From Crocinitomicaceae bacterium (GTDB taxonomy: Bacteria; Bacteroidota; Bacteroidia; Flavobacteriales_D; Crocinitomicaceae), in contig JAQXCN010000060.1 in NCBI GenBank assembly GCA_029251865.1, forward strand, positions 1 to 64,000: DNA of 64,000 bases, written 5' to 3'. Every line of letters starts with the position of its first letter. Position 1 is the first letter of the stretch. The translations under genes and the position numbers were made by a program. The notes beneath the pieces are model-generated. The model saw nothing but the letters and a program-made list of their open reading frames with translations. It was not told the DNA's origin and searched no databases. Shown in pieces: positions 16,299-39,808 of this stretch.

Positions 16299-16359
16299 TG
16301 TTTAACATGTGTTGTCCATTTCTTGTAATGGGACTCACAATCGGCGAAGCCATATAAAA

Positions 16360-18524: not shown

Positions 18525-18529
18525 AGTAG

Positions 18530-19678
18530 TTGAAAGAAGAAAAAATCATATCATTTATAAGATCATTGCATAAAAGTGATGCTTTCATTCCACTCCATGC
18601 ACCGTATTTCGGAGGGAATGAAAAGAAATATCTCAATGAATGCATTGACTCCACTTTTGTATCAAGTGTCGGTCCTTTTGTGAATAACTTTGAAAAGGAA
18701 ATAGCTAAGTATGTTGATGCACAACATGCCGTTGCCGTTGTAAATGGCACCTCTGCTATTCATACTGCTTTGGAAGTTGTAGGAGTAAAAGAAAATGATG
18801 AGGTGATTACACAAGCTCTTACCTTTGTTGCAACAGCAAATGCAATTGCCTACTGCAAAGCAAAACCACTTTTTATTGATGTAAATAAAGAATCAATGGG
18901 TCTCTCACCTACCGCTTTAAAAACCTTCCTTGAGGAAAATACGACTGTAAAAAATGGCGTATGTATAAATAGTTTAACAAATAGAAAAATAAAAGCATGT
19001 CTTCCAATGCATACTTTCGGATTCCCTTGCAGAATCGTAGAAATATGTGATATATGTGAAGCTTTCGGAATCCCAGTTATCGAAGATGCTGCAGAAGCGT
19101 TGGGAAGTTCGGTGAATGGAAAAAAAATAGGGACTTTTGGTACAATTGGTGTTTTTTCTTTCAATGGAAATAAATTAATCACCGCTGGTGGTGGTGGTGC
19201 ACTGGTTACGAACAACACCAAATACGCTCAAAAAGCGAAGCACATTACAACAACAGGTAAAAAAAACCACCCTTTTGAATTTTTTCACGATGAGTTAGCT
19301 TACAACTACAGAATGCCAAACCTAAATGCAGCCTTAATTTGCGCGCAGTTGGAACAAATAGAGGTTTTCCTTAAAGATAAAAGAGAATTAGCGAATGATT
19401 ACCGATCATTCTTTGAAGCATTAGGAGTCACTGTAAGAAGTGAAGAAGAAAATACAAAGGCAAATTATTGGCTCATCTGTCTTGAATTAAACAATAAAGA
19501 GGAAAGAGACCACTATTTAAAATTCTTAAATCAAAATGAAATTATGGCGCGGCCGATTTGGCAATTAATGTATAAACTACCTATGTATGAAAACTGTTAC
19601 CGAGACGACCAAAAAAATGCCCAATATTTAGAAGATAGAATTATTAATATACCAAGCAGTTATAGAAATAATGGATGA
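18530..19678 (+). CDS. legC: LegC family PLP aminotransferase
   Basis: IPLHAPYFGGNEKKYLNECIDSTFVSSVGPFVNNFEKEIAKYVDAQHAVAVVNGTSAIHTAL; ITAGGGGALVTN. Confidence 0.85.
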   Translation: MKEEKIISFIRSLHKSDAFIPLHAPYFGGNEKKYLNECIDSTFVSSVGPFVNNFEKEIAKYVDAQHAVAVVNGTSAIHTALEVVGVKENDEVITQALTFVATANAIAYCKAKPLFIDVNKESMGLSPTALKTFLEENTTVKNGVCINSLTNRKIKACLPMHTFGFPCRIVEICDICEAFGIPVIEDAAEALGSSVNGKKIGTFGTIGVFSFNGNKLITAGGGGALVTNNTKYAQKAKHITTTGKKNHPFEFFHDELAYNYRMPNLNAALICAQLEQIEVFLKDKRELANDYRSFFEALGVTVRSEEENTKANYWLICLELNNKEERDHYLKFLNQNEIMARPIWQLMYKLPMYENCYRDDQKNAQYLEDRIINIPSSYRNNG

Positions 19679-20288
19679 TGGGATTATTTTATTGGGGTAT
19701 TCTGGCCATGCCTATTCGGTAATAGATGCGGCGTTAAATAATGGCAGCAAGATCACGGGCTATTGTGATTTTAAGGAAAATAAAGAAAATCCTTTTGCCA
19801 TTAAATTCCTTGGAAAGGAAGATGATTTGGCGCACAATCAAAATGTCTTGTTCTTTCCTAGTGTCGGAGATAACATACTTCGAAAACAACTTGTTGGTTT
19901 TATTGAATCAAAAAAATGGGGACAAACAAAAATCATACACCCGTCATCTAAAATTTCGCCGAAAACCACAATCGGGCATTCAACATTTATATCAAGTGGT
20001 GCAATTGTCAATGCACTCGCATATATAGGCAAAGGCTGTATTATCAATTCAGGAGCAATTATTGAACATGAATGTAAGATTGAAAACTTTTGCCATATCG
20101 CCCCAGGAGCAACAGTTGCAGGAAATGTTAAAATAGGGGCGCACTCTTTTGTCGGATCAAACGCGACAATAACCCCGGGAGTTACTATAGGACAAAACGT
20201 CATAATTGGTGCGGGAACCGTAGTACTAAAAGATATTCCTGATAATGCTACTTGTGTAGGCAACCCCGCAATAATAATAAAGAAATGA
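19671..20288 (+). CDS. NeuD/LegH-type sugar O/N-acetyltransferase (left-handed beta-helix)
   Basis: N-terminal GYSGHAYSVIDAALNNG and hexapeptide repeats ...IGAHSFVGSNATITPGVTIGQNVIIGAGTVVLKDIPDNATCVGNPA. Confidence 0.88.
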   Translation: MDDGIILLGYSGHAYSVIDAALNNGSKITGYCDFKENKENPFAIKFLGKEDDLAHNQNVLFFPSVGDNILRKQLVGFIESKKWGQTKIIHPSSKISPKTTIGHSTFISSGAIVNALAYIGKGCIINSGAIIEHECKIENFCHIAPGATVAGNVKIGAHSFVGSNATITPGVTIGQNVIIGAGTVVLKDIPDNATCVGNPAIIIKK

Positions 20289-21301
20289 AACCTGTTTTAA
20301 TCATCGCAGAAGCCGGAGTAAATCATAATGGGGACCTCAATATTGCCAAAGCATTAATCGATGCTGCCTCAGATGCCAAAGTTGATATCGTAAAATTTCA
20401 AACGTACAAAACTGAAAAGCTCGTCAGTAAAAAAGCAAAACAAGCATCTTATCAACAAAAAAACACAAAATCAGAAGGTCAGTTTGCAATGCTGAAAAAA
20501 TTAGAATTACCTGAAGATTGGCATTATAAACTTAAAGCCTACGCCGAAACTAAAGGGGTTCAATTCTTATCCACCGGATTCGATCATGATAGCTTAGACT
20601 TTTTGTATTCCATGGGGCCCTCGTTTTTCAAAATACCATCAGGAGAGATCTCTAACAAGCCTTATCTTGAACATGTTGCTGCCTTTAAAAAGCCTATCGT
20701 CTTATCAACAGGAATGAGTAACATTGAGGAAATCGCAGCCGCGATCAGTGTACTTGCAAACAATGGTATTTCTAAAGAGCAACTATGCATTCTACATTGT
20801 AACACAGAATACCCAACCCCATTTGAAGATGTAAATCTTAAAGCAATGTGTTCGATACAAAATCATTTTAATGTAGAAGTAGGATACTCTGATCATACGC
20901 TAGGAATAGAAGTTGCTGTTGCTGCCGTTGCTCTCGGCGCAAAGGTTATTGAGAAGCATTTTACAATATCTCGCGCCATGGAAGGTCCTGATCATGCAGC
21001 TTCACTTGAACCTGACGAACTCAAAGAAATGGTCAAAAGCATTAGGAACATTGAAAAAGCACTATCAGGTAACGGTATCAAAGCTCCAAGTCCATCAGAA
21101 TTAAAAAATAAAACCGCTGCAAGAAAAAGCATTCACATTAATACCGCTCTCAATACTAATGATTGTGTTGAAAGACACCATTTAGACATAAAACGACCTG
21201 GAGATGGCATTAATCCAATGCAAATAGACGAGGTTGTGGGTAAAAAGATTAAAACAGATTTACAAGCTGATTCAAAGTTAAAGTGGGAGGACTTAGAATG
21301 A
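20285..21301 (+). CDS. neuB: N-acetylneuraminate/legionaminate synthase
   Basis: MKPVLIIAEAGVNHNGDLNIAKALIDAA...FKIPSGEISNKPYLEHVA...EVGYSDHTLGIEVAVAAVALGAKVIEKHFT plus SAF-like C-terminus. Confidence 0.93.
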   Translation: MKPVLIIAEAGVNHNGDLNIAKALIDAASDAKVDIVKFQTYKTEKLVSKKAKQASYQQKNTKSEGQFAMLKKLELPEDWHYKLKAYAETKGVQFLSTGFDHDSLDFLYSMGPSFFKIPSGEISNKPYLEHVAAFKKPIVLSTGMSNIEEIAAAISVLANNGISKEQLCILHCNTEYPTPFEDVNLKAMCSIQNHFNVEVGYSDHTLGIEVAVAAVALGAKVIEKHFTISRAMEGPDHAASLEPDELKEMVKSIRNIEKALSGNGIKAPSPSELKNKTAARKSIHINTALNTNDCVERHHLDIKRPGDGINPMQIDEVVGKKIKTDLQADSKLKWEDLE

Positions 21302-22413
21302 AAATAGCTGTTTTAACAAGTTCAAGAGCGGATTACGGAATTTATTTACCACTGCTAAAAAGACTGAAAGAAGATGCTGAAATTCAACTTTCAATTATTG
21401 CCTTTGGCACGCATTTAAAAGCCCAATTCGGAAAAACAATAGACCAAATTAAAAATGACGGGTACACAATTACAAAACAAATTGACAACCTAAAATATGG
21501 TGACAATCCACAAGATATTGCGCTAAACTATGCGTATACAACCAAGTTATTTGCTGAGTTATGGAATGATACGAGCTATAACTACGTTATTTGCTTGGGG
21601 GATCGCTATGAAATGGCAGCAGCTGTAAATGCCGGGATTCCATTCGGCGTTAAATTTGTACATATTCATGCAGGAGAGACCAGCGAAGGTGCAATAGACA
21701 ATATTTATAGAGATCAAATCTCATTGGCCTCTACCCTTCATTTCGTGGCAATTGAATCCTTTACGAAACGAATTAAAGCACTCACTAAAAAGAAAAATAC
21801 CTCTCATTTCTGCGGAGCAATAGGCTTAGAAAATATTAACGGTGTGAAATTATTATCAAACAAGGAATTTTACACAAAGTGGCAAATAGATTTAAAGCTA
21901 CCAACAATTTTAATGACTGTCCATCCCGAAACAATTGATACTACCGCCAACCATTCGCATATAGAGGAACTTAAAACAGCTTTGATTGTACTTCTTGAAC
22001 AAAGTCAGGTACTAGTTACTATGCCAAATGCGGATACTCTTGGCTCCATGTATAGAACAATGTTTGAAAAACTTAAATATAAATATCCCGTAAAATTATT
22101 TCTTGTTGAGAATCTGGGGACACAATCCTATTTTACAGCAATGAAATATTGCAAATTACTCATCGGGAACACATCAAGTGGTATAATAGAAGCTGCTTCA
22201 TTTAAGAAATTTGTGATTAACCTCGGTAATAGGCAACTAGGACGAGCACATGGTGAAAATGTCATTCATGTGCCTTTTGATTGTAAAAAAATCGTTTCAA
22301 AAGCCATGATTTATTTTGACTCCATTTATACAGGGCCGAACATATATGAGCGAAAAAATGGCAGCGCACAAATAATAAAAATCTTAAAAGATAAACTGAA
22401 TGGAATTTCGTAA
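21298..22413 (+). CDS. neuC: UDP/GDP-N-acetyl-sugar 2-epimerase, hydrolysing (NeuC/LegG)
   Basis: MKIAVLTSSRADYGIYLPLLKRL...CLGDRYEMAAAVNAGIPFGVKFVHIHAGETSEGAIDN. Confidence 0.92.
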   Translation: MKIAVLTSSRADYGIYLPLLKRLKEDAEIQLSIIAFGTHLKAQFGKTIDQIKNDGYTITKQIDNLKYGDNPQDIALNYAYTTKLFAELWNDTSYNYVICLGDRYEMAAAVNAGIPFGVKFVHIHAGETSEGAIDNIYRDQISLASTLHFVAIESFTKRIKALTKKKNTSHFCGAIGLENINGVKLLSNKEFYTKWQIDLKLPTILMTVHPETIDTTANHSHIEELKTALIVLLEQSQVLVTMPNADTLGSMYRTMFEKLKYKYPVKLFLVENLGTQSYFTAMKYCKLLIGNTSSGIIEAASFKKFVINLGNRQLGRAHGENVIHVPFDCKKIVSKAMIYFDSIYTGPNIYERKNGSAQIIKILKDKLNGIS

Positions 22414-23449
22414 GCATATAATTCAAGAAACTGACAGTGTCAAGAACGCATTAGTTATGCTCGATAAATTAGCAGCAGACGCGATTCTTTTTGCAGTTGA
22501 CCATGATGGTGTCTTAACTGGCTCTTTAACAGATGGAGATATAAGAAGAGGGCTAATGGCTGGTTCTAAAATCAACGATTCAATACGCTCGGTATGCTAC
22601 AAGACTCCAAAATATATAAACCAAAAAAAGATAGAATTAACCAAGTTAATTGATTTTAGACAAAATGATTTTAACATTATACCCATTGTTGATGAGAATA
22701 ATATTGTTGTAGATGTTATCAATTTTAAAAAACGAAAGACGATTCTTCCTGTTGACGTGGTCATTATGGCAGGAGGCAAAGGAATGCGTCTTCGTCCACT
22801 TACTGAGGATCTACCTAAGCCGCTATTAAAGGTTGGTGATAAATCAATTCTAGAACATAGCTTATTAAGGTATGACGCATTTGGCGTAAAGAGTATAAAT
22901 ATTACCACAAATTACTTGTCTCAAAAAATAGAGGACTTTATTGAACAGAAAAAAAACGATTATCGCACGACGATAGAAACGGTTAAAGAAAGTCAATTTT
23001 TAGGCACAATAGGAGCCATTAAGCTTGTCAAAAATTTCAGTGAAGATTACATTTTAGTGTCAAACTCTGATTTATTAACGGATATTGATTTTGAGGCATT
23101 CTTTTTAGATTTCGTTGAAAGTGACGCTGACATGAGTGTTGTGAGCATCCCATATCATGTTGACATACCATATGCAATAATGGATATAGAGGATGATTAC
23201 CTCAAAAGTTTTCACGAAAAACCGAAGTACACCTATTATTCAAATGGTGGTATATACCTATTGAAGAAAGAATTATTAAATCTCATTCCTATTAATGAGG
23301 CATTCTCGGCAACAGATTTAATGAATGCGGTTATAAGTCAACGTAAAAAAATAAAAACTTTCGCACACAACAGTTACTGGCTAGATATAGGGCAACATCA
23401 GGATTACAAAAAGGCACAAAATGATATAAAAACACTAAAGCTTTTATGA
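22400..23449 (+). CDS. CBS-domain nucleotidyltransferase (PtmE-like)
   Basis: CBS pair then DVVIMAGGKGMRLRPLTEDLPKPLLKVGDKSILEH. Confidence 0.85.
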   Translation: MEFRKHIIQETDSVKNALVMLDKLAADAILFAVDHDGVLTGSLTDGDIRRGLMAGSKINDSIRSVCYKTPKYINQKKIELTKLIDFRQNDFNIIPIVDENNIVVDVINFKKRKTILPVDVVIMAGGKGMRLRPLTEDLPKPLLKVGDKSILEHSLLRYDAFGVKSINITTNYLSQKIEDFIEQKKNDYRTTIETVKESQFLGTIGAIKLVKNFSEDYILVSNSDLLTDIDFEAFFLDFVESDADMSVVSIPYHVDIPYAIMDIEDDYLKSFHEKPKYTYYSNGGIYLLKKELLNLIPINEAFSATDLMNAVISQRKKIKTFAHNSYWLDIGQHQDYKKAQNDIKTLKLL

Positions 23450-24153
23450 CTTCAATAAACGATATTTTAGTTGTTATTCCAGCAAGAGGAGGCTCTAAAG
23501 GCATTCCTATGAAAAATATAAAGTTGCTTAATGGAAAACCATTGATACAATACAGTATTGAATTTGCTTTAACTCATTTTAAAAAGGAGCAAATTATTGT
23601 CTCCACCGATCACAAAGACATTCAAAGAGTTGCTCAAATATGTGGAATCCCCACACCTACACTAAGACCAAGACATTTGGCAGAGGATGATAGCTCTACT
23701 CATGATGTGTTATTGAACTTAATAAAACAAAAAAAAGCAGAGGGTTTTTCATTTAAGCGTGTTTTACTTCTTCAACCCACTTCTCCCTTTAGAAAATCGA
23801 ATCACCTGAAAGATATTTTAAAACTAACCTCACCAAACCTAGACATGGTTGTTAGTGTAAAAGAATCTAAGTCAAATCCTTATTTCAATCTTTTTGAAGA
23901 AAATGAATCAGGAAATCTTGAACTTTCAAAACAAAGGGATGTTTCGGGTAGACAATATGCACCGAAGGTATTTGAATACAATGGATCAATGTATCTCATG
24001 AACGTCAACAGCCTGGAGCGTATGAAAATTAATGAGTTTTCGAAAGTTAAAAAGTATGTCATGTCATCATTAGATTCAATTGACCTAGACTCTCAGATTG
24101 ATTGGGATTTTGCTGAATTAATGATCAAACAAAATCAGATTGAAATCGATTAA
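23446..24153 (+). CDS. CMP-nonulosonate cytidylyltransferase (NeuA/LegF)
   Basis: VVIPARGGSKGIPMKNIKLLNGKPLIQYSI...LLQPTSPFRKSNHL. Confidence 0.9.
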   Translation: MTSINDILVVIPARGGSKGIPMKNIKLLNGKPLIQYSIEFALTHFKKEQIIVSTDHKDIQRVAQICGIPTPTLRPRHLAEDDSSTHDVLLNLIKQKKAEGFSFKRVLLLQPTSPFRKSNHLKDILKLTSPNLDMVVSVKESKSNPYFNLFEENESGNLELSKQRDVSGRQYAPKVFEYNGSMYLMNVNSLERMKINEFSKVKKYVMSSLDSIDLDSQIDWDFAELMIKQNQIEID

Positions 24154-29161: not shown

Positions 29162-30142
29162 ATGCTAAGTGAAAACTTGATTATTGACAACTGGCAAGAA
29201 AAAAAATGTCTTGTGAGTATCTGCTGCTTAACTTATAACCACGAATTATTTATTGAACAGTGCCTCAAAAATCTTCTGAACCAAATAACTGATTTTGGCT
29301 TCGAGATCCTTATTCATGATGATGCCTCTCAAGATCAAACACAAGGAATCATTAAAAAATATGCCGAACAATATCCAAAAATCATTAAACCAATTCTACA
29401 GACAGAAAACCAAAGGTCTAAAATAAATACGGGAATGAACCCTAAATTTAATTATCCAAGAGCTGCTGGTAAGTACATTGCCTTTTGTGAAGGGGATGAT
29501 TACTGGATTGACCCCTATAAACTTCAAAAACAAGTTGCCATTTTAAACACCAATCATGACATTGGATGTGTTGTTACTGATTATAATAAACTGATAGAAA
29601 ATAAGTCGGTTTACAACGAAAAAGTTTTATCAAAAACATTTAAAACCATTCAGAACGGAATAATATCCGCATATCCCTTATTTTCAATTGCACTTAAAAA
29701 AACGAGAACGGTAACGGCTATGGTGCGGATGGATTGTATTAATGAATTTCAAAAAAAAGACTTTTTAAAGGGGGTGCCTGGAGATACTCAACTTTTTGGA
29801 TATCTGCTTTTAACAACAAAAATCTATTTCAAAAAAGAAAGTACAGCCGTTTATAGAATCTTGAATGAATCTGTGAGTCATACAAATTCATTCGCGAAAA
29901 AGCAGCAATTCATGAAAAGCTTTAATATCTATATGGCACATATAATAGCCAATTACAACTTACCAAGGGCCGATAAAAAGTACTATCAAAAATCGATTAG
30001 GCTATTTAAAATAAGAGCCATGGCTCACGAGCAAAAAAGGCTTCAAACCTTAATAGAATCGATACTTTTTGTCCTAAACGGTCATTTATCGAAACTTATT
30101 ATTCCTCAAATTAAAATTGCATTTAAAAATAAAGATGAATAG
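29162..30142 (+). CDS. Glycosyltransferase family 2
   Basis: VSICCLTYNHELFIEQCLKNLLNQITDFGFEILIHDDASQDQTQ...FCEGDDYWIDPYKLQKQV. Confidence 0.92.
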   Translation: MLSENLIIDNWQEKKCLVSICCLTYNHELFIEQCLKNLLNQITDFGFEILIHDDASQDQTQGIIKKYAEQYPKIIKPILQTENQRSKINTGMNPKFNYPRAAGKYIAFCEGDDYWIDPYKLQKQVAILNTNHDIGCVVTDYNKLIENKSVYNEKVLSKTFKTIQNGIISAYPLFSIALKKTRTVTAMVRMDCINEFQKKDFLKGVPGDTQLFGYLLLTTKIYFKKESTAVYRILNESVSHTNSFAKKQQFMKSFNIYMAHIIANYNLPRADKKYYQKSIRLFKIRAMAHEQKRLQTLIESILFVLNGHLSKLIIPQIKIAFKNKDE

Positions 30143-31163
30143 AAGTTATTTTTTTGTTCGAACACCAATTCAATATTATAATGCCATAGAGGCAAAAGAA
30201 AGTTTACCGAAGAACGTACAATGTTTTCTAATCATTTTATCCGATTATCCCAAAACGCTCAGTCAATTTAAAGAACTAGTCGACCATGAAATGTGGGTAA
30301 GCGTTTTAATGCCATGGAAAAAGTATGGGGATTTAACAAAGTCTAAATTTTTAAATCGCCTCTTGAATATCACAAGACGACTCTCGTTAAATGCTATTTT
30401 TAAATCAATTGAAGAATCAGATACTATCTTTTGGGGGAACTATAACTCAATTTGGTTGCGTTACTTTATATCAAAGAAAAACAATACGGTATCCATTCTT
30501 GATGATGGGTTTGCGACGCTTTCACTCGTCAGCCAAATACAAAAAGACAGGATCGTATTTGTCAAAAATGTGACCACCTCGGGGTTCATTGACCGCCTTC
30601 TCGTAAGCAGATCAACAAGTATTCCTCTAAAAAGACTTAAGTTTTTTACCTCATTTAGAAACATATCACCCTTAATAAATGAGAGGTCAACCTATACGGA
30701 GTATCCTTTCCTAAGAAAACAAGCAAATCAGAATTTTCGGATCGAAGAAAAAATGTTTTTCATTGGCCAACCGCTAATACGTCTCTCTTTAATGACAAAG
30801 GTAAATTACATAAAGAATATTAATCGCATTTTTGATTTTTACAAAAAACAAGGCTTAAAATGTTTTTATATTCCTCATCGAACCTCCAAACTTGATTATT
30901 TCCCAAAACAATGGAATACAATTAATTTCAATTTCCCACTAGAAAATTTGATATTTGAAGAAAATGAAAGTTTACCAAGAGTAATAGCAAGTTTCTATTC
31001 TTCGGCTCTCTATTTCGTAAATAAATTTGGGCAAAACCAAGAAATTAATTTTGAATATTGGAAAGCAATGGATTTAGAAGGAAACCGAAATATCGAAAAT
31101 TGTTACGCTTATATTAAAAAAGAAAAATCTAAAAACACCGTTATTCATCAGCTTGATACCTAA
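30135..31163 (+). CDS. Putative polysialyltransferase/GT52-superfamily-like glycosyltransferase
   Basis: MNRSYFFVRTPIQYYNAIEA; SILDDGFATL (D/E-D/E-G motif); FYIPHRTSK (HP-like position); IASFYSSALYF (S/SS motif). Confidence 0.6.
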   Translation: MNRSYFFVRTPIQYYNAIEAKESLPKNVQCFLIILSDYPKTLSQFKELVDHEMWVSVLMPWKKYGDLTKSKFLNRLLNITRRLSLNAIFKSIEESDTIFWGNYNSIWLRYFISKKNNTVSILDDGFATLSLVSQIQKDRIVFVKNVTTSGFIDRLLVSRSTSIPLKRLKFFTSFRNISPLINERSTYTEYPFLRKQANQNFRIEEKMFFIGQPLIRLSLMTKVNYIKNINRIFDFYKKQGLKCFYIPHRTSKLDYFPKQWNTINFNFPLENLIFEENESLPRVIASFYSSALYFVNKFGQNQEINFEYWKAMDLEGNRNIENCYAYIKKEKSKNTVIHQLDT

Positions 31164-32388
31164 AGATAAAATAGAAACTGTAGTCAAAATCTTTTTAATC
31201 ATTCCATTGATAAATGTCGTGGCTACTATTTTTACTCCTTACTTTCCTGGAGGAACTTTGAACCCAGGAGTTGTAAGAGGTATCTTCTTGACTCTATTTT
31301 GTCTCTGGTTTTTGATTTCTAAGAATCATTTTAATGCCATCACTAAATCCTCATACGTATTTCTATTCTACCTTTTGATTCTTTGTTTTCTCTCGTCGAG
31401 CATTCTTACATCCCTTTACATTTATAATAAAGTTTTTATTGCTAGTATGTTTTTGCCTTTAGCCATATATTTTTTGAATACAGAAGATAAATTCTTAATA
31501 CTTCTACGGATCTGTATTCTAGCTTTAGGAATACTTGAAATCAACTTTTTCTTATCAAATATCCTAGGAATCGGCATTGCCACGTATAAAGACGAGAGCG
31601 TTCTGTTTGGAGAAGCCGGGGTAAATATCACCAAGGATATAGTAATATTTATTGTTATACTGCCTTTTTATCTTAAATATGAAAAACATAACACGTTAAA
31701 AATCATAGGTTCCTTCCTTCTCGCTCTTGGTGTTATAATCGTCATTCTCGGGATGAAAAGATCCGCGATTCTTGCGTTATCTGCAGGTTTTTTTATTTAT
31801 TCATTGTTAACCCCTTATAAGACAAGAATCCTGAGACTAACGCCATTTATCGTTGCTTTTGTTCTTTTGTCAGGCCCCTATTATATCCCAATTATTGAAA
31901 AAAGATTTAAAGCGCGACAAGAACGTGTTTCAATGACTTATAATCAATTATCTTCCAGTGAGGAAGAAGGTCGATTACTCGAGGTTCAATTTACTATACA
32001 GCAAACATTTGGAGATTCATTTGAAAAAATATTTATTGGATATGATTTGTTTTTGAAAAAACAATTCCAAGGGCATAAAAGAATGCTTCATATTGATTAC
32101 ATGAACATGCTCGGCGGTGCAGGGGTATTTGGTTTAACGCTATTCTTATATATATATTGGTGTATATGGCACTATGCAAGGAAAATCAAAAAAACAAGTC
32201 AACCTAGTTTGGCTAAAAATGAGGTTTATGCCGTGATATGCTGTCTTCTGGGGGTTCAAGCCTTCATGTCCTTTGGAGGGACAATGCAAGGACTTGATTT
32301 AAGGGGTACCATTTTACTCTTGCTTGGCTCTTTCCTTGCACTCGGATTACAGGAGTTAAAAAAAGAAAATGTAGTATATGAATCCTGA
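31153..32388 (+). CDS. O-antigen polymerase-like membrane protein (Wzy)
   Basis: ~411 aa multi-TM protein in a Wzx/Wzy-type locus; TTG start. Confidence 0.7.
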   Translation: MIPKDKIETVVKIFLIIPLINVVATIFTPYFPGGTLNPGVVRGIFLTLFCLWFLISKNHFNAITKSSYVFLFYLLILCFLSSSILTSLYIYNKVFIASMFLPLAIYFLNTEDKFLILLRICILALGILEINFFLSNILGIGIATYKDESVLFGEAGVNITKDIVIFIVILPFYLKYEKHNTLKIIGSFLLALGVIIVILGMKRSAILALSAGFFIYSLLTPYKTRILRLTPFIVAFVLLSGPYYIPIIEKRFKARQERVSMTYNQLSSSEEEGRLLEVQFTIQQTFGDSFEKIFIGYDLFLKKQFQGHKRMLHIDYMNMLGGAGVFGLTLFLYIYWCIWHYARKIKKTSQPSLAKNEVYAVICCLLGVQAFMSFGGTMQGLDLRGTILLLLGSFLALGLQELKKENVVYES

Positions 32389-33649
32389 AATAAACGGAAA
32401 CGATTTAGCCCTTTTTTCCTTATTCCATCATGATATTTCGAAAAATACCAATGGGTACTCTTATTTAAATTCAGCGCACTTCAATGCCCTCAAAGAAACG
32501 CCCACTTGCGATGATGAATCTATTACAAATACAATAATAGAAATCGTAAAAGAAGGAACATCTGGATGCTTAGAAGGTGAAGTTGGACTGACGCTAACCG
32601 GTGGATTTGATTCTAGGGTTATTCTCGCTGCTTTATTATCTATCGGTATAAAACCGATTTGTTTAACGTATGGAAACCCAAGAAATAAGGATATCAGTAT
32701 TAGTAAAAAAATCTGTAAGACCTATGGTCTGAAACACGTTAATACAGTTTCTGAAAAGCCAACAGCGACATCTTATTTAAAGGCTGTCAAAGAAACTATT
32801 TTGATAGATAAGGGAGATGCGCATCTCCATCGTGCACATAGAACGCTTGCAATAAATGAATTTACAAAACAGCAGAAAATCAAAGTGCTTTTTACCGGTC
32901 ACTTTGGGGGAGAACAAATCAGAGGATTGAGCTATAATAATTATTTTTCTTCATCTATATTTGAGGAGTATAATGAGAGACAATCTCAAATAGAAAAACT
33001 CGTAGAGGAAGGTTTAAAAAAGTACTTTTTAAAAGAAGGAAGCTATTCATTACCAGTAGTTATCGAAAAAGTGAAAAACTTGAAATGGATGCAGCGTGAT
33101 AAACAAAATAATAAGCTTTATTTCTTGTACGATTTAGTTGGTATGAATCATCACATGCAAGACATTAGAATTTATTCAAAATATGTCGATAAAGTAATCC
33201 CTGTGTATTTAGATGACAGGTTTATTGATACGCTAATGCGCTCTCCGCATCACTTTTCAAGGAAAAAATCAAATAAATTAGCTTCGTTATCGCACCCCAA
33301 ACTGTATTGTGAAATCATAAAAACATTATATCCTGAATTATTAAAAATTGAGCTTAGTAATGGCTACAAACCTTCAGATTATGAAAAAGGAATCTTTCAC
33401 TATGTAAAAAAGCGCATTTTTAAAAAGTATATTTTGAAATCCTATAATCCACCTTCATTCTCCTACGGACAATGGTATATTGATTTTGTAACAAAAAACT
33501 CAAATCTTGTCCAAAATGAAATTTGGGAATATTTTGATGAGAAAGCGTATTTTCATGCGCTGAAAGAAAACCAACATGCGTCCAATGAGGGATATTGGCA
33601 TAAATTTTCAAATCCTATCTTTTTTAATCTTAAAAAGTTATCTAAATGA
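32378..33649 (+). CDS. Asparagine synthase C-terminal-like PP-loop enzyme without glutaminase domain
   Basis: VGLTLTGGFDSRVILAALLSIGIKPICLTYGN PP-loop (SGGxDS-like), LFTGHFGGEQIRG; no N-terminal class II amidotransferase Cys. Confidence 0.75.
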   Translation: MNPEINGNDLALFSLFHHDISKNTNGYSYLNSAHFNALKETPTCDDESITNTIIEIVKEGTSGCLEGEVGLTLTGGFDSRVILAALLSIGIKPICLTYGNPRNKDISISKKICKTYGLKHVNTVSEKPTATSYLKAVKETILIDKGDAHLHRAHRTLAINEFTKQQKIKVLFTGHFGGEQIRGLSYNNYFSSSIFEEYNERQSQIEKLVEEGLKKYFLKEGSYSLPVVIEKVKNLKWMQRDKQNNKLYFLYDLVGMNHHMQDIRIYSKYVDKVIPVYLDDRFIDTLMRSPHHFSRKKSNKLASLSHPKLYCEIIKTLYPELLKIELSNGYKPSDYEKGIFHYVKKRIFKKYILKSYNPPSFSYGQWYIDFVTKNSNLVQNEIWEYFDEKAYFHALKENQHASNEGYWHKFSNPIFFNLKKLSK

Positions 33650-34692
33650 GCATTGTAATTCTTAGAAATGAACTACCAGACTCTTCAAAAAAGTGGGAAT
33701 TAGCTTGTGATCGCAAAAACTTAAGTTACACCACCATAGATTTAACAAGTCATAATTGGTTTGAACAGATCCGTAATGCTAAGCCTTCTCTCCTATTATT
33801 GAAACCCTCTGGACTTACTGCTCCCTATAAAGAACTCTACGACGAGCGAATAAGAGTATTAGTAGAAGAATGTAATCTGCCTTGCTACCCCTCTGTTAAA
33901 TCAGTTCTTTTATATGAGAATAAACGATTCTTATCCTTTTGGCTAAAGTCAAACGATATTGATCATCCAGAAACCTTCGTGTTTTATAAAAAACAAGAGG
34001 CTTCGCATTTTGCGAATAACAATGAAGACTTCCCTATCGTTGCAAAGACAAATATAGGTGCATCAGGAAGTGGCGTGACCATTTTAAAATCTAAAAACGA
34101 TCTAGAATTATACATTTACAATACATTTTCTGGTATGGGCGCCATGAAAAGAAGAGGTCCCAACCTTAAAAAAGGAGGTCTTCTCAAACGAGGATTTAAA
34201 CTACTACTTAATCCAAAGAAACTCAAAAGTAAAATTGAGGTCTACGAGGCAAGAGCCGCGGATATTCAGAAAAACTTCATTTTGCTTCAAGAATTTATTC
34301 CACACGATTATGAATGGCGGGTTGTGCGTATTGGGAAATCTTTTTTTGCTCACAAGAAACTTATCAAAGATGATAAAACAAGTGGGAGCTTAGAGAAATC
34401 ATATGAAAATCCTCCCGTTGAACTTTTCGAGTTTGTTCGGAATCTGACAGATACTCATGATTTAGATTCCGTTTCGATTGATTTATTTTATCATAATGGA
34501 ATTTATTTGGTTAATGAAATTCAATGTATTTTCGGTCAATCTGATTCATTCCAAATGAAAGTTAATGAAACAATTGGTCGATACACCTTCTTGAAAAACA
34601 ATTGGGTATTTGAAGCGGGAGACTTCAACACAAACGAAAGTTATGATTTGAGATTATCACATGCACTTTTAAAACATTCCATAGAAGAGTGA
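33646..34692 (+). CDS. ATP-grasp enzyme (RimK-like)
   Basis: FPIVAKTNIGASGSGVTILKSKNDLELYI, FILLQEFIPHDYEWRVVRIGKSFFAHKK, SVSIDLFYHNGIYLVNEIQCIFGQ. Confidence 0.82.
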   Translation: MSIVILRNELPDSSKKWELACDRKNLSYTTIDLTSHNWFEQIRNAKPSLLLLKPSGLTAPYKELYDERIRVLVEECNLPCYPSVKSVLLYENKRFLSFWLKSNDIDHPETFVFYKKQEASHFANNNEDFPIVAKTNIGASGSGVTILKSKNDLELYIYNTFSGMGAMKRRGPNLKKGGLLKRGFKLLLNPKKLKSKIEVYEARAADIQKNFILLQEFIPHDYEWRVVRIGKSFFAHKKLIKDDKTSGSLEKSYENPPVELFEFVRNLTDTHDLDSVSIDLFYHNGIYLVNEIQCIFGQSDSFQMKVNETIGRYTFLKNNWVFEAGDFNTNESYDLRLSHALLKHSIEE

Positions 34693-35609
34693 AGGTCCTT
34701 TTTGTAAGCAGCGGTAATTTAAATAAAGGTCGACCAAGTGTTCTTGTTAAGAATCAAGGTGACTCCTTGGTAGACTGTGATATTGAAGTTGCTTATTTTA
34801 CCATCCAAAGCAAAGGTTTAATGGGTTATCTAGGAGCAGTAAGGCACATTTTAAGAACCATAAAATTAAATAAACCGGATTGCATTCATTCGCACTATTC
34901 ATTAAGTGCTTTTGCTACATCAATTGCTTTGATATTGCTAAGAAAAAAAACACCGCATATAGTATCTTTAATGGGCAGCGATACAAAAATTGGTGGTTGG
35001 AAAAGAACCCTTGCAATTCACTTATCTAAGAGTCGATGGAACCATACGATTGTAAAGGCAGAAAGCATGGCAAAAGAATTAGGTATTAACAAATACAACG
35101 TTATACCTAACGGTGTTGACATGCGCAAATTGAAGCCAATTAGTTCAGATAATAATTTAAGCGTTATTTTCCCCGCGGACCCGTCTAGGGAATCTAAAAA
35201 CTATAACCTTGCAGAACGCGCTGTATCACTAGTGAAAGAGTCCATACCAAATTTGAATTTTCAAATTTGTTTTGGCCTAAAACACGCAGAAATCATTTCA
35301 AAACTTCAGCAATCAGGAGTGGTTTTAATAACATCACTTTGGGAAGGATCCCCGAACATTGTAAAAGAAGCTATGGTTCTCAATAAGCCAATTGTATGCA
35401 CGAAGGTTGGAGATACAGAATTACTGCTTGAAAATGTATCAGGCGCATTCTTGGTTGGTTTCGATGTTCAAGAGGTTGCGAATGGGATCAAAAAAGCTAT
35501 CGCTTTTAGCCAAAGCGAAAGTAAATCAACAGGTCGTATGAGAATAGAGGAACTGAAGCTTGATAGTACAAGTATTGCGGAGCGATTAATCAACATCTAT
35601 AAATCATAA
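34689..35609 (+). CDS. Glycosyltransferase family 4
   Basis: HSHYSLSAFATSIAL; NVIPNGVDMRKLKP; TSLWEGSPNIVKEAMVLNKPIVCTKVGDTELLL. Confidence 0.92.
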   Translation: MKVLFVSSGNLNKGRPSVLVKNQGDSLVDCDIEVAYFTIQSKGLMGYLGAVRHILRTIKLNKPDCIHSHYSLSAFATSIALILLRKKTPHIVSLMGSDTKIGGWKRTLAIHLSKSRWNHTIVKAESMAKELGINKYNVIPNGVDMRKLKPISSDNNLSVIFPADPSRESKNYNLAERAVSLVKESIPNLNFQICFGLKHAEIISKLQQSGVVLITSLWEGSPNIVKEAMVLNKPIVCTKVGDTELLLENVSGAFLVGFDVQEVANGIKKAIAFSQSESKSTGRMRIEELKLDSTSIAERLINIYKS

Positions 35610-36757
35610 TGGTAAAGGGAGTTCTTATTATCGAAGGGCATGTTCAAGGGCTTTCTAATGCCCGCAGTGCCGCAGAACTCAATCTCCCTGTCTGGGTGAT
35701 GCACAATGGCTCCTGTATTACCTCCCACTCTCATTCTTGTAAAAAATTCATTCCATGTAGTCCCTACGGCTCTCCGGAATTTATTGAAGAACTAGTAAAA
35801 CTTGGTAAACAAAATAGACTTAAGGATTGGCTTATCTTACCATCGAACGATTATGCTGTTCTTAATATTGCAAAAAATATAAAAAAACTTGTTCCTTTTT
35901 ACAAAACCTTTAGTTCAAGTATTGAGATCCTTAATACTATTGTGAATAAAAGCAAATTAATGGGGCTTGCTATAGAGTCGGAAATTGATATTCCCAAGAC
36001 CTATGAAGAAATTCAATACAATGATTTTTTAGAACACGATTTTACATACCCACTCCTTACCAGGGGAATTATAGGTCAAGATTTTTATAAAAGAATTGGT
36101 GTTAAAGCCCTCAAAAGCGAAAACCTAAAGGAACTCAAATTAAATCTCATTCGCATTACAAATCACATTGATCTAAGCCAATCGATTACCCAAGAACTCA
36201 TTCAAACAACAAATGGTCAAAAATCAGCAACAATTTCTACATGCTGTCTATGCGTTGAGGGAATCATTCTTAATTTATGGATGGGTGAAAAACTCAATGA
36301 GCATCCCATATCTTATGGGACAGCGACTCTCGCACGAAGTGTAAAAATAAAAGCGTTAGAAGAACCTGCTAAAAAACTAATAAAAGCGATTAATTATACG
36401 GGGATTTGTGAAATTGAATGGTTATACAATCCCAAGCAAAGAAAATATAACCTCATCGAAATTAATCCAAGAACATGGCTTTGGGTCGAGCTTGCAAAAG
36501 CCTCGGGAATTGATTTTATAAAAGATGTGATTCATATTTTAAACGGCGAAGAAATAACAAAAAATAAGTTTTATGAAAATCATGTTTATTGGTATAACCC
36601 GATAACATATTATCCTTTTAAATTTTTTGCAATAGTCAAAAACATACCCAATTTCAGTCCAAAAGGTAAAGTGGTGAATGCATTATTTAAAAAAGGAGAT
36701 AATAAACCTGGTTGCGCTTATCTTTGGACTTTATTAAATATTATAAAACGAAGATGA
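35609..36757 (+). CDS. ATP-grasp enzyme (carboxylate-amine/D-aspartate ligase-like)
   Basis: VLIIEGHVQGLSNARSAAELNLPVWVMHN; TGICEIEWLYNPKQRKYNLIEINPRTWLW. Confidence 0.78.
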   Translation: MVKGVLIIEGHVQGLSNARSAAELNLPVWVMHNGSCITSHSHSCKKFIPCSPYGSPEFIEELVKLGKQNRLKDWLILPSNDYAVLNIAKNIKKLVPFYKTFSSSIEILNTIVNKSKLMGLAIESEIDIPKTYEEIQYNDFLEHDFTYPLLTRGIIGQDFYKRIGVKALKSENLKELKLNLIRITNHIDLSQSITQELIQTTNGQKSATISTCCLCVEGIILNLWMGEKLNEHPISYGTATLARSVKIKALEEPAKKLIKAINYTGICEIEWLYNPKQRKYNLIEINPRTWLWVELAKASGIDFIKDVIHILNGEEITKNKFYENHVYWYNPITYYPFKFFAIVKNIPNFSPKGKVVNALFKKGDNKPGCAYLWTLLNIIKRR

Positions 36758-37836
36758 CGGTTTTATTTATTACTGGACACCCTGCTCAAATTCATAATTT
36801 TAGAATCGTTAAACAGCTTCTTGAAAAAAAGGGACACGACGTCCATTGGGTCTCTAGTAAGAAAGATATCAGTTTTCAGCTTTTAAAGCTCTACAACATA
36901 AAGTATACGGAAATTAGAAAACCTGACAAGAACCTATTTTCAAAGGCGAAGGCTTTATTTGTGAATACTCGAATTATCATGCGCGTATTAAGAACAAAAA
37001 AAGTAGACCTGATTGTATCGCGTGTATCCCCATTTGGAGCGCTAGCTGGATTTCTTTACCGCAAACCTCACATCGCATTAGCAGATACAGAGTCGTCTGG
37101 AATATATGATACAATCTTTTCTAAATTTATTCAAGTGTTAATAACATCTTTGAGCTATGCGCGAACACTAAGAAAAGATCAGGTAAGAATAGATAGTAAT
37201 ATAGAATTGTTTTATCTGCATCCTGAGCATTACGTATTACCAAAAGAAAATACGCCTTCATTGAAGATACAAAAAGATGAGCCTTATGCCTTACTAAGAT
37301 TTGTGAATTGGGAAGCATATCATGATAAAGGACTTAGTGGTTTTACAAATGAAAATAAAATAAAAGTGGTTAACGAGCTACGCAAGAACCACATGAAAGT
37401 ATTTATCTCCTCAGAAGGTGCATTGCCTGAAGAACTCGAACCTTTCAGAATTTCAATATCTTTTGATGAAATGCATGACGTTATTGCAAAGAGCAAATTA
37501 TTTTTCGGTGAAGGCGCCTCAATGGCGGCAGAAGCTGCTGTTCTTGGTGTACCTGCAATTTTTCTCAATGACAATTGGTCAGGCAATGCTATAGATCTTG
37601 TTAAATACGAGTTGATGTACTGTTTCAAAAGTACATCGCAAGACCAGAATGAAGCCATTTCAAAAGCAATAGCAATTGCTACGATGACAGATAAAACTTA
37701 TTACCAAAATAAACGGAAAATTTACCTAGACTCTAAAATAGACGCCTCCACTTTTCTTTGTTGGTTTATTGAAAACTACCCTGAAAGTAAAATTAAAGCA
37801 TTAATAAAAACCTCTAATTTAGTCGATCTTAAGTAA
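36754..37836 (+). CDS. DUF354 family GT-B-fold protein
   Basis: MTVLFITGHPAQIHNFRIVKQLLEKKGHDVHWVSSKKD...FFGEGASMAAEAAVLGVPAIFLND. Confidence 0.82.
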   Translation: MTVLFITGHPAQIHNFRIVKQLLEKKGHDVHWVSSKKDISFQLLKLYNIKYTEIRKPDKNLFSKAKALFVNTRIIMRVLRTKKVDLIVSRVSPFGALAGFLYRKPHIALADTESSGIYDTIFSKFIQVLITSLSYARTLRKDQVRIDSNIELFYLHPEHYVLPKENTPSLKIQKDEPYALLRFVNWEAYHDKGLSGFTNENKIKVVNELRKNHMKVFISSEGALPEELEPFRISISFDEMHDVIAKSKLFFGEGASMAAEAAVLGVPAIFLNDNWSGNAIDLVKYELMYCFKSTSQDQNEAISKAIAIATMTDKTYYQNKRKIYLDSKIDASTFLCWFIENYPESKIKALIKTSNLVDLK

Positions 37837-38591
37837 TGGATTTCACAATATATACCTATAAAAAATTACTGAATGCACTTCAAAATGCTGGTTACAACTT
37901 CCAAACCTTCGCTGAATTTATAAGAGAACCAAAAGAAAAAAGCGTAATGCTCCGCCACGATGTAGACAAACGACCAAGAAATTCAGAGGAATTTGCTAAA
38001 ATTCAGAAATCTCTTGGAATCAAAGGGACCTATTATTTCAGATGCGTGCCAGAAAGCTATGATGAGCAAATCATCAGAAATATCTCGGAAATGAACCATG
38101 AGGTTGGCTACCATTACGAAGAAATGGATTTATGTCATGGGAATCTTGATTCGGCTCTTAAATTATTTGAAAAAAACATTACAAAACTACGCGAACTTTG
38201 TCCTATTGAAAGTATATGTATGCACGGAAGCCCAAGATCAAAGTATGACAATAAATCACTTTGGAATTCAAATAAATATTCTGATTATCAGGTTGTTGGA
38301 GAGCCATACCTAGACTTAAATTTTAACAAAATAGGATACCTTACCGACACGGGGCGCACTTGGAATGGAGCACGGTTCTCAGTACGTGACAAAGTAGATT
38401 CCAAGCTAGAATTTAACATTGCTTCAACACAAGAGTTCATCGGTGCATTAAATGAAAATAGACTTCCAAATCAATTAATGCTCACTTTTCATCCACAACG
38501 CTGGACATCTAATAAGACAGCTTGGTTTCAAGAGCTTCTAGTTCAAAACTTGAAAAACGTAGTGAAAAAGATTTTAGTAAGAAGAAATTAA
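37836..38591 (+). CDS. Polysaccharide deacetylase-like protein (NodB-like)
   Basis: SVMLRHDVDKRPRNSEEFAKIQKSLGIKGTYYFRC...NHEVGYHYEEMD; LTFHPQRWT. Confidence 0.78.
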   Translation: MDFTIYTYKKLLNALQNAGYNFQTFAEFIREPKEKSVMLRHDVDKRPRNSEEFAKIQKSLGIKGTYYFRCVPESYDEQIIRNISEMNHEVGYHYEEMDLCHGNLDSALKLFEKNITKLRELCPIESICMHGSPRSKYDNKSLWNSNKYSDYQVVGEPYLDLNFNKIGYLTDTGRTWNGARFSVRDKVDSKLEFNIASTQEFIGALNENRLPNQLMLTFHPQRWTSNKTAWFQELLVQNLKNVVKKILVRRN

Positions 38592-38728
38592 AACGGTTTT
38601 ATGATTCACACATGAAACGCGGTTGTATCTGGACAGAAAACAATAAGAGTCGTAAATCCGTGTTATCCCTTTCATTCGAATTCTCGAAGATGTATTCTAG
38701 TTAATTTTAAGATTTCAGATAATTGGCT

Positions 38729-38736
38729 TATTTTTG
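38729..38736 (+). promoter_or_regulatory. Bacteroidetes -7-like box TATTTTTG upstream of sugar transferase/wza/wzc
   Basis: Matches TAnnTTTG, 28 nt before the ATG at 38765, inside the only sizeable gap of the locus; no convincing -33 element seen. Confidence 0.4.
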
Positions 38737-38764
38737 CTTGAACAAAGGAATACAAAGGATAGCT

Positions 38765-39808
38765 ATGGAAAATAACGTCAATTTAGAGCACGACACTTCT
38801 GTTGAACTAGACGCTATGGTAGCCTTACTTGTAAAAAAAGCAGCCACAGCAAAAGAGTCACTTTTTAATGAAGAGTATTTGCTAGAACAACTCCTTCAAT
38901 CCTTTCAGCTAAATAAAACACATAAATACTTTATTGATACCCAGCCATTAAATGAATTTAGAGATTTAGATGCTCATTTAAAACTAATGAATACAGAGTT
39001 GGACAACGAAAAACTCTATATTGGATTCGTGCAAACCTTAAGTGATTGGAGAAAATCTAAAACTATACTTCGAATCCCAATCATTGGTATGAGTTTTAGG
39101 ATTTTCACCTTCTTTACCAAACGTGTCATTCCAAGACTAAATATTTATAAAAAAGTTGGTCTTCAGAGAAAATTCCATTTCCTTTCTAAGGCGGAATCAA
39201 TTGGGCGGCTCATATATAATGGCTTTGAAGTTCAGGCTTTTTTAGAAATTAAAAACAGACATGTTTTTGTAGTCAAAAAAATTGGGCAACCTAAATCTGT
39301 AAAGCCTAGCTTTGGTCCTATTTTCAAAATGAACCGAATTGCAAAAAATGGAAAAATTATAGGTGTTTATAAGTTAAGAACTATGCATCCCTATTCTGAA
39401 TTTGTATACGACTACATGGTTGTAAACCATGGATTTGGACCAGATGGTAAAATAAAAGATGATTTCAGAACATCAAGATGGGGTAAAATTCTAAGGAAAT
39501 ATTGGATTGACGAGCTTCCGCAATTAGTAAATCTATTTAATATGCAAATGAAACTAGTTGGTGTTCGTCCCGTAAGTGAATCTTATTTCAATAGACTACC
39601 TAAAAAATTAAAAGAAAACAGGGTGAAATATAAGCCAGGATGTATACCGCCATATGTTGCTTTAGATTTAGGAACTACTAAGGATGCAGTTTTAAAGGCA
39701 GAAGAAATTTATTTAGAAGAAAAAGAAAGGAATCCTTACACCACAGATTTGAAATATTTGTTTAAATCTATATACAAAATCATTTTTCAACGTAAACGGT
39801 CTGCATGA
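38765..39808 (+). CDS. Bacterial sugar transferase (phosphoglycosyl transferase-like) initiating glycan assembly
   Basis: FGPIFKMNRIAKNGKIIGVYKLRTMHPYSE, DFRTSRWGKILRKYWIDELPQLVNLFNMQMKLVGVRPVSESYF. Confidence 0.85.
   Translation: MENNVNLEHDTSVELDAMVALLVKKAATAKESLFNEEYLLEQLLQSFQLNKTHKYFIDTQPLNEFRDLDAHLKLMNTELDNEKLYIGFVQTLSDWRKSKTILRIPIIGMSFRIFTFFTKRVIPRLNIYKKVGLQRKFHFLSKAESIGRLIYNGFEVQAFLEIKNRHVFVVKKIGQPKSVKPSFGPIFKMNRIAKNGKIIGVYKLRTMHPYSEFVYDYMVVNHGFGPDGKIKDDFRTSRWGKILRKYWIDELPQLVNLFNMQMKLVGVRPVSESYFNRLPKKLKENRVKYKPGCIPPYVALDLGTTKDAVLKAEEIYLEEKERNPYTTDLKYLFKSIYKIIFQRKRSA

What the first reader, a model, noticed from the sequence alone, without database searches (positions are those of the whole stretch)
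32378..38591. PP-loop + two ATP-grasp + GT4 + DUF354 + deacetylase cassette: candidate undescribed glycan-amidation pathway
Six tightly coupled genes: AsnB-like PP-loop enzyme lacking the glutaminase domain, RimK-like ATP-grasp, GT4, a second ATP-grasp (carboxylate-amine ligase-like), DUF354 and a NodB-like deacetylase. Both PP-loop (AMP-forming) and ATP-grasp (ADP-forming) enzymes typically activate carboxylates for amide or peptide bonds. Three such activators in one glycan locus that also makes a carboxylated nonulosonic acid suggests decoration of the sugar with amino acids or an amide. The families are established; the pathway is inference.
Basis: partly seen in the sequence, partly recalled or inferred. 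Interest (0 to 1): 0.72.

Follow-up and report, generated by a model that had tools for sequence, protein, structure and literature searches.

The report
Modular amide-decoration cassette for surface sugar
A block of six bacterial genes sits at one spot in a sugar-coat locus and probably attaches amino-acid-like groups to the cell's surface sugar through amide bonds; related bacteria swap the attaching enzymes in and out of the same slots, which makes this a testable but still unproven source of surface variety.

Summary
The six genes are real, overlap by 1-4 bp and keep one order in all eight complete congeneric loci found. They encode a PP-loop ligase without a glutaminase domain, a LysX/ArgX-type ATP-grasp, a GT4, a second ATP-grasp, a DUF354-like protein and a diverged NodB-like deacetylase. 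Key residues are conserved. Relatives in three other families keep the set in shuffled order.

The cassette is modular, not indivisible. At the same locus in sister genomes a RimK-like ATP-grasp, GT4, DUF354 and deacetylase persist, the PP-loop varies or is absent, and the second ATP-grasp is replaced by a FemAB-type aminoacyltransferase or other enzymes. DUF354-deacetylase pairs also occur alone. An E. coli homologue of the first ATP-grasp sits beside an opine-type dehydrogenase and UDP-uronate genes.

Best reading: the deacetylase frees an amine, an ATP-grasp (in a FemAB/VimA-like slot) acylates it with an amino acid, and the other two ligases form further amides. This resembles the Wbp/Vim and C. 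difficile flagellin pathways but uses different ligases. The proposed tie to the nonulosonic acid is not general. All chemistry is inferred. New variant of a known kind; interest 0.55.

The parts
32378..33649 (+). PP-loop (AsnB-like) AMP-forming ligase, 423 aa, no glutaminase domain; motif TGGFDSR
   Evidence: PF00733 25.4 bits; AF2 model pLDDT 85 matches AsnB 1ct9 E 2e-6, carbapenam and beta-lactam synthetases; TGG-D-R invariant in 12 homologues
33646..34692 (+). ATPg1: RimK/LysX/ArgX-type ATP-grasp ligase, 348 aa
   Evidence: TIGR00768 5.5e-9; model pLDDT 82, best PDB matches ArgX 3vpb E 1e-14 and LysX; K93, K134, D279, E291 invariant in 13 homologues, R225 in 12 of 13
34689..35609 (+). GT4 glycosyltransferase, 306 aa (GTG start)
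   Evidence: PF13439, PF13692, PF00534 above cut-off; retained in every genus allele whose slot is covered
35609..36757 (+). ATPg2: CPSase-like (PF02786) ATP-grasp carboxylate-amine ligase, 382 aa
   Evidence: PF02786 37.8 bits; E268, E284, N286, R288 invariant in 10 homologues; its slot holds a FemAB-type enzyme in G223 and G225
36754..37836 (+). DUF354-like GT-B-type protein, probable glycosyltransferase, 360 aa
   Evidence: PF04007 19.9 bits, below cut-off; same-slot proteins elsewhere are true DUF354
37836..38591 (+). Diverged NodB/CE4-like putative deacetylase, 251 aa
   Evidence: PF01522 13.8 bits, below cut-off; RHDVD, H88, H93, H130, D171, W176, H219 invariant in 8
38723..39808 (+). 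Initiating sugar-1-phosphate transferase (Bac_transf); neighbour, often directly after the deacetylase in unrelated loci
   Evidence: PF02397 81.4 bits; adjacency
30117..31163 (+). polyST-like (PF07388) transferase, probable nonulosonic acid transferase; conserved upstream neighbour
   Evidence: PF07388 33.7 bits
31153..32388 (+). Wzy/O-ligase-like membrane protein; conserved upstream neighbour
   Evidence: PF04932 19.8 bits (below cut-off), TIGR03097 E 2e-7
16309..24153 (+). TviC-like epimerase and nonulosonic (legionaminic-type) acid set: LegB/PseB-like, LegC, NeuD, NeuB, NeuC, sugar-1-P nucleotidyltransferase, CMP-NulO synthetase
   Evidence: TIGR04181 543 bits, TIGR03570 207, TIGR03569 476, TIGR03568 336, all over cut-off

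Best explanation
The block is a modular amide-forming decoration unit inside a wzy-type surface-polysaccharide locus of a Crocinitomicaceae-type bacterium. GT4 and the DUF354-like protein add sugars of the repeat unit (inferred from families). The deacetylase removes an N-acetyl group from an amino sugar and exposes an amine (inferred). ATPg2 activates a carboxylate as acyl phosphate and joins it to that amine, most likely adding an amino acid or similar acid; in sister loci the same slot holds a FemAB-type aminoacyltransferase (slot swap shown, chemistry inferred). ATPg1, a LysX/ArgX-type ligase, joins the amine of an amino-acid-like compound to a carboxylate of the substituent or of an acidic sugar (fold and residues shown, substrates inferred). 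The PP-loop enzyme adenylates a carboxylate and couples it to an amine that does not come from glutamine, because it has no glutaminase domain (absence shown, reaction inferred). The outcome would be a glycan carrying one or more amide-linked, possibly peptidyl, groups.
For: Fixed order in eight complete congeneric loci and the same genomes for PP-loop and ATPg1. Set kept in other families with shuffled order: G304, G394 and G422 have all six types, G361 has all six on a short contig. ATPg1 fold = ArgX/LysX; PP-loop fold = AsnB/carbapenam/beta-lactam synthetase. Ligase residues intact. Relatives of the PP-loop keep an N-terminal GATase-like domain without an N-terminal Cys. Slot swap ATPg2 to FemAB in G223 and G225, the FemAB matching TIGR03019, the family that VimA also matches (PMC7468200). 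No locus examined had both ATPg2 and FemAB (tallied in 107). E. coli homologue of ATPg1 (30.5% identity over 91%, same Q293/H236 signature) is followed by N5-(carboxyethyl)ornithine synthase with UDP-sugar dehydrogenase and epimerase; the pair is kept at 71% identity in three other E. coli. Precedents with experiments: ATP-grasp amidation of glucuronate in C. jejuni (PMC11800379), ATP-grasp CDR20291_0245 needed for the peptidylamido-sugar of C. difficile flagellin (PMC5207246), deacetylate-then-aminoacylate in the Wbp/Vim linking sugar (PMC7468200).
Against: No glycan structure or enzyme assay exists. The deacetylase is below the Pfam cut-off and has Glu where I recall the second metal-binding His of the CE4 family. 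ATPg2 and the deacetylase act on unknown substrates, and three type C loci have a MaoC-like dehydratase rather than FemAB or ATPg2 in that slot. Five further Bacteroidota deacetylase loci with strong hits show neither ATPg2 nor FemAB (tallied in 107). ATPg1 has Gln where related ligases have Asn at the metal site (Asn from my own knowledge).
Confidence: 0.57

Rival explanations
1. One reading: the ligases decorate the carboxylate (or amines) of the legionaminic-type nonulosonic acid made by the same locus.
For: In this genus all type A and B loci whose contig reaches far enough contain the NeuB/NeuC/NeuA set; cassette versus close NeuB: 9 of 11 against 5 of 75 genomes, and four of those five carry variant cassettes while the fifth contig ends early. 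ATPg1 is of the class that joins an amine to a carboxylate. C. botulinum flagellin carries a legionaminic acid with an N-methyl-glutamyl group (PMC5207245).
Against: The module occurs in G304, G394 and G422 with no NeuB hit in about 45-48 kb, and the core occurs in G159, G206 and G208 whose genomes have no NeuB match. G394 and G422 instead carry UDP-sugar dehydrogenases, and G304 has neither.
Confidence: 0.17
2. The cassette makes a Wbp/Vim-like linking sugar to which type IX secretion cargo is attached.
For: Part-by-part resemblance to VimE (deacetylase), VimA (FemAB slot), VimF (glycosyltransferase), WbpS (AsnB-like) (PMC7468200); the genome has a PorU sortase at 1239 bits; a protein with a type IX sorting tail lies beside the cassette in G159; G394 carries a dehydrogenase/Gfo-Idh/aminotransferase/hexapeptide set like Wbp next to the cassette.
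Against: PorU is in 84 of 86 congeners but the deacetylase in only 21 (12 of 50 good genomes against 50 of 50), so the cassette is not needed for type IX attachment in the genus; no Wbp set in the window locus; allelic variation suits a polymer better than a conserved linker. Direct homology to VimE/VimF was not tested.
Confidence: 0.12
3. Plain primary-amide formation (uronamide or acetamidino) as by WbpS or by N-acetyl sugar amidotransferase (WbuX/PseA).
For: The PP-loop enzyme belongs to the broad AsnB/PP-loop class; acetamidino genes (N-acetyl sugar amidotransferase, HisF2, HisH) lie near DUF354-deacetylase in Spirosoma.
Against: No glutaminase domain or partner glutaminase was found next to it; the N-terminal domain of longer relatives has no N-terminal Cys; the fold match to the N-acetyl sugar amidotransferase 8wex is poor, E 6e-3 and TM 0.23. 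It would not explain two ATP-grasps.
Confidence: 0.07
4. No joint pathway: glycan genes brought together by ordinary shuffling of a variable locus.
For: Slots are swapped and DUF354-deacetylase occurs alone.
Against: The same specific subfamilies, rare in the phylum (PP-loop in 6 of 396 genomes), are found side by side in unrelated families.
Confidence: 0.07

Closest known systems
Wbp/Vim linking-sugar pathway of Porphyromonas gingivalis and Tannerella forsythia (PMC7468200)
   Same: Deacetylase, amino-acid-transferring enzyme, glycosyltransferase, AsnB-like enzyme and initiating transferase acting on one amino sugar; type C sister loci have a FemAB that matches the same model (TIGR03019) as VimA
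   Different: Window has ATP-grasp ligases rather than a FemAB, a PP-loop enzyme without glutaminase rather than WbpS, no Wbp uronate set in the locus, and it is not present in most type-IX-bearing congeners
Peptidylamido-glycan locus of C. difficile type B flagellin (CDR20291_0244-0247; PMC5207246, PMC5207245)
   Same: ATP-grasp enzyme, FemAB-like enzyme, glycosyltransferases and an alanine-dehydrogenase-like enzyme; ATP-grasp mutant loses the amide-linked group
   Different: Flagellin O-glycan, one ATP-grasp, no PP-loop ligase, no deacetylase-DUF354 pair
Cj1438 C-terminal amidoligase of C. jejuni capsule (PMC11800379)
   Same: ATP-grasp ligase that joins an amine to a sugar carboxylate during capsule synthesis
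   Different: TupA-like subfamily, fused to a GT2; no TupA-type match for ATPg1 or ATPg2 was listed
LysX/ArgX (LysW-gamma-aminoadipate or glutamate ligases)
   Same: Fold of ATPg1 and the ATP-grasp residues
   Different: About 13-16% identity, Gln for Asn at the metal site, about 65 extra residues, sugar-locus context
AsnB / beta-lactam and carbapenam synthetases / lasso cyclases
   Same: Fold and PP-loop of the PP-loop enzyme; loss of glutaminase function as in beta-lactam synthetase (from general knowledge)
   Different: Entire N-terminal domain gone in this genus, TGGFDSR rather than SGGxDS, unknown substrates

Membership tests
Glutamine-dependent AsnB/WbpS amidotransferase | N-terminal glutaminase domain with N-terminal Cys | tested here: not met
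   No GATase match and protein starts directly at the synthetase domain; longer relatives lack the N-terminal Cys
Glutamine-dependent AsnB/WbpS amidotransferase | PP-loop synthetase domain | tested here: met
   PF00733 over cut-off, fold AsnB E 2e-6, T-G-G-x-D-x-R invariant
N-acetyl sugar amidotransferase (WbuX/PseA) | Same PP-loop subfamily and HisH/HisF-type partner | tested here: not met
   No such model; weak fold match only; no HisH/HisF-like gene among the annotated genes of the window locus
RimK/LysX/ArgX ATP-grasp ligases | ATP-grasp fold of this type | tested here: met
   Foldseek E 1e-14, TM 0.56/0.67; TIGR00768 E 5.5e-9 but far below the subfamily cut-off
RimK/LysX/ArgX ATP-grasp ligases | ATP- and metal-binding residues | tested here: inconclusive
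   K93, K134, D279, E291 invariant, but Gln at 293 where Asn is expected (expectation from general knowledge)
DUF354 (PF04007) | Score over the Pfam gathering cut-off | tested here: not met
   19.9 against 22 bits; same-slot homologues pass
NodB/CE4 polysaccharide deacetylase (PF01522) | Score over the Pfam gathering cut-off | tested here: not met
   13.8 against 23.1 bits
NodB/CE4 polysaccharide deacetylase (PF01522) | Conserved CE4 catalytic motifs | tested here: inconclusive
   RHDVD, H93, D171/W176 and H219 invariant, but Glu replaces the expected second His (motif expectation from general knowledge)
Wbp/Vim pathway | VimA-type FemAB aminoacyltransferase in the locus | tested here: not met
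   None in the window cassette; ATPg2 lies in that slot; FemAB present in type C sister loci
Wbp/Vim pathway | Wbp set for a diacetamido-uronic acid in the locus | tested here: not met
   No UDP-sugar dehydrogenase among the window locus genes; a Wbp-like set is present in G394
Wbp/Vim pathway | Deacetylase orthologous to VimE | not tested
   No named Porphyromonas sequence was available to compare
Wbp/Vim pathway | Type IX sortase PorU in the genome | tested here: met
   1238.6 bits, cut-off 420
TupA-like amidoligase (Cj1438C type) | Match to a TupA-type ATP-grasp model | tested here: not met
   No TupA-type family among the matches of ATPg1 or ATPg2
Glycan amide-decoration locus | Amide-linked substituent on the polymer | not testable with these tools
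   Needs MS/NMR of the glycan

The most novel reading that the evidence does not exclude
A so far undescribed route to peptidyl-glycans in which three ATP-dependent ligases of two mechanistic classes (one AMP-forming PP-loop enzyme without glutaminase, two ADP-forming ATP-grasps) build a multi-amide side group on each repeat unit, with ATP-grasp and FemAB enzymes exchanged at one slot between strains as a serotype-like switch.
Probability: 0.25. Interest if true: 0.75.

Novelty: new variant of a known kind. Interest (0 to 1): 0.55.

Why it matters
Amide-linked amino acids on bacterial surface glycans are known chemically in many species, but the enzymes that attach them are characterised in few. 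This locus type, with defined slots that are filled by different ligases in sister strains, gives a natural set of comparisons: matching glycan structure to slot content in a few strains would assign functions to a PP-loop ligase subfamily without glutaminase, an ATP-grasp subfamily also found in E. coli, and the widespread DUF354-deacetylase pair that bacteria and haloarchaea share.

Tried and rejected
Single-sequence scan of genome contigs for the PP-loop protein found no relatives; the alignment scan did. A phage search for ATPg1 and a plasmid search for the PP-loop gave no match. A profile comparison of the PP-loop family with a true AsnB from L095 gave only a weak alignment, so I did not map catalytic residues onto AsnB. 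Rejected: primary amide formation (no glutaminase, no Cys); N-acetyl sugar amidotransferase (fold and family); the type IX linking sugar as the main role (84 of 86 against 21 of 86 genomes); a strict six-gene unit (slots are swapped). I considered testing whether ATPg1 loci are enriched for acidic-sugar genes; the sample (present in the window genus, G394, G422 and the E. coli locus, not found in G304 and G449) is too small and has no proper background, so I draw no statistics from it. Literature searches for ATP-grasp with DUF354, deacetylase or asparagine synthase in glycan loci found no description of this cassette; the library holds only open-licence papers.


Full report
OBSERVATION. The window lies in contig C20 of a 2.38 Mb genome whose congeners are labelled Crocinitomicaceae, Flavobacteriales or similar in public records (two carry the labels Chitinophaga pinensis or Lishizhenia tianjinensis, which are MAG names). 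The six genes are there, on the + strand, overlapping by 1-4 bp. Upstream is a nonulosonic acid set that passes NCBI cut-offs for LegC, NeuD, NeuB and NeuC, a flippase, an aminotransferase, WbqC, two sulfotransferases, a GT2, a polysialyltransferase-family protein and a Wzy-like protein; downstream are an initiating sugar transferase, Wza and Wzc.

FAMILIES. The PP-loop protein is Asn_synthase-like without a GATase domain. ATPg1 is RimK-like. GT4 and ATPg2 are clear. DUF354 and deacetylase score below the Pfam cut-offs. A predicted structure of ATPg1 (pLDDT 82) is closest to ArgX and LysX, enzymes that join the amine of an amino acid to a carboxylate of a carrier protein (function from general knowledge). 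A model of the PP-loop protein (pLDDT 85) is closest to asparagine synthetase B, then carbapenam and beta-lactam synthetases, and not to the N-acetyl sugar amidotransferases. One oddity is Gln293 in ATPg1 where related ligases have Asn; it is kept in all nine members of the close subfamily, including the E. coli one, and differs in more distant relatives.

CONSERVATION IN THE GENUS. Of 86 congeneric genomes, PP-loop was found in 11 and ATPg1 in 10 of those 11; in the eleventh, G160, the contig ends inside the PP-loop gene. In the eight complete loci the order polyST-wzy-PPloop-ATPg1-GT4-ATPg2-DUF354-deac is the same, while the genes between wzx and polyST differ. A single ancestral locus explains part of this, so the Fisher values should not be read as independent trials.

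MODULARITY. The same locus, bounded by nonulosonic genes or wzy on one side and the initiating transferase, wza and wzc on the other, has other alleles. Type B (G155, G203, G161, G167) has a diverged PP-loop protein of about 560-585 aa, a hexapeptide acyltransferase, another RimK-like ATP-grasp of about 344 aa, then GT4, ATPg2, DUF354 and deacetylase. Type C (G223, G225, G159, G206, G208) lacks the PP-loop and ATPg2; where covered it keeps the RimK-like ATP-grasp and GT4, always DUF354 and deacetylase, and puts a FemAB-type enzyme (G223, G225) or a MaoC-like protein with a hexapeptide protein (G159 by Pfam; G206 and G208 by position and size) where ATPg2 would be. The FemAB of G223 matches PF02388 at 9e-13 and TIGR03019. 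Over the genus the deacetylase is in 21 and ATPg2 in 17 of 86 genomes.

OUTSIDE THE GENUS. In a sample of 396 genomes of the phylum, PP-loop relatives were found in five genomes besides the window's own, four of them strong. G449 has ATPg1, ATPg2 (weak), DUF354 and deacetylase but no PP-loop match. The PP-loop relatives are 562-586 aa long; three of them match GATase or glutaminase-containing models in the N-terminal part, but they start MIQW, MKPD, MWLI, MTDS or MSQR, so the N-terminal Cys of a glutaminase is absent. The window version has lost the domain altogether.

INDEPENDENT PARTS. DUF354 and the deacetylase occur as a pair without the ligases in Spirosoma and, adjacent or nearby, in Halobaculum and Halorientalis plasmids, several times with a PF13480/FemAB-type GNAT. 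In many Bacteroidota loci the deacetylase lies next to the initiating transferase. An ATPg1 homologue in an E. coli plasmid polysaccharide locus is directly followed by N5-(carboxyethyl)ornithine synthase and accompanied by a nucleotide-sugar dehydrogenase and an epimerase; a 71%-identical pair is found in three other E. coli. O-antigens with N-epsilon-(carboxyethyl)-lysine amide-linked to galacturonic acid are known (PMC10609480), which makes an opine-type amine the likely partner of that ATP-grasp (inference).

MECHANISM. The most economical reading combines three precedents. In the Wbp/Vim pathway a deacetylase (VimE) exposes an amine and VimA adds serine or glycine to it, and an AsnB-like WbpS makes the uronamide (PMC7468200; the VimE and VimA steps are those authors' inference from mutants and mass spectrometry). 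In C. difficile an ATP-grasp enzyme is required for a peptidylamido-sugar, with a FemAB-like gene beside it (PMC5207246). In C. jejuni an ATP-grasp domain amidates glucuronate (PMC11800379). In the window the deacetylase would free an amine, ATPg2 would acylate it, and ATPg1 and the PP-loop enzyme would add further amides. Shown: gene content, order, slot swaps, fold class, intact residues, absence of a glutaminase. Inferred: all substrates, the order of steps and the product.

THE NONULOSONIC ACID. Within the genus, type A and B loci are associated with the nonulosonic set wherever the contig allows a look. Outside the genus the module occurs without a NeuB hit in about 45-48 kb around it, and type C cores occur in three congeners whose genomes have no NeuB match (two of the three are 88-90% complete). 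So the nonulosonic acid may be the acceptor here, but it is not a defining partner.

TYPE IX SECRETION. The resemblance to Wbp/Vim raised the possibility of a linking sugar for secreted proteins. PorU is present in the window's genome and in 84 of 86 congeners, while the deacetylase is in 21. The cassette is therefore not the general linking-sugar pathway of this genus.

VERDICT. I rate it a new variant of a known kind, interest 0.55.

Noticed in passing
L124:16655-17461 (G161); L051:219-1025 (G394); L053:17711-18526 (G422): A phosphatidylserine-decarboxylase-family protein (PF02666, E 1e-35 to 1e-42) sits between or beside ATPg2 and DUF354 in three separate lineages; it might decarboxylate an attached serine, a guess only.
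   Followed up: partly
L100 (Halobaculum magnesiiphilum plasmid, about 7898-17608): Acyltransferase, DegT, Gfo/Idh, nucleotide-sugar dehydrogenase, deacetylase homologue, DUF354 and GNAT in one haloarchaeal locus: the gene types of a complete Wbp/Vim-like set in an archaeon.
   Followed up: partly
27348-29158: Two sulfotransferases and the preceding WbqC protein are found only in the closest alleles (G212, G160); other alleles have acyltransferases or nothing there.
   Followed up: no
L020 and L021 (G176, G209), between tviC and neuD: The LegB- and LegC-like genes are absent from these two alleles although NeuB, NeuC and NeuA remain, which suggests a sialic-acid-like rather than legionaminic-acid-like product.
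   Followed up: no
L120:6978-9050 (G159) and size-matched ORFs of about 690-740 aa in other alleles: A protein of about 690 aa with a type IX sorting tail (PF18962) lies between the deacetylase and the initiating transferase in G159; ORFs of similar size lie there in several other alleles, often on the opposite strand.
   Followed up: partly
L093, L162, L163: An ATP-grasp and opine-type dehydrogenase gene pair in E. coli surface-polysaccharide loci on plasmids and chromosomal islands, surrounded by insertion sequences.
   Followed up: partly
L051:3219-4391, L041:15362-16534: A conserved protein of about 390 aa without a family over cut-off (weak GH127-like match) follows the two-domain oxidoreductase in three lineages.
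   Followed up: no
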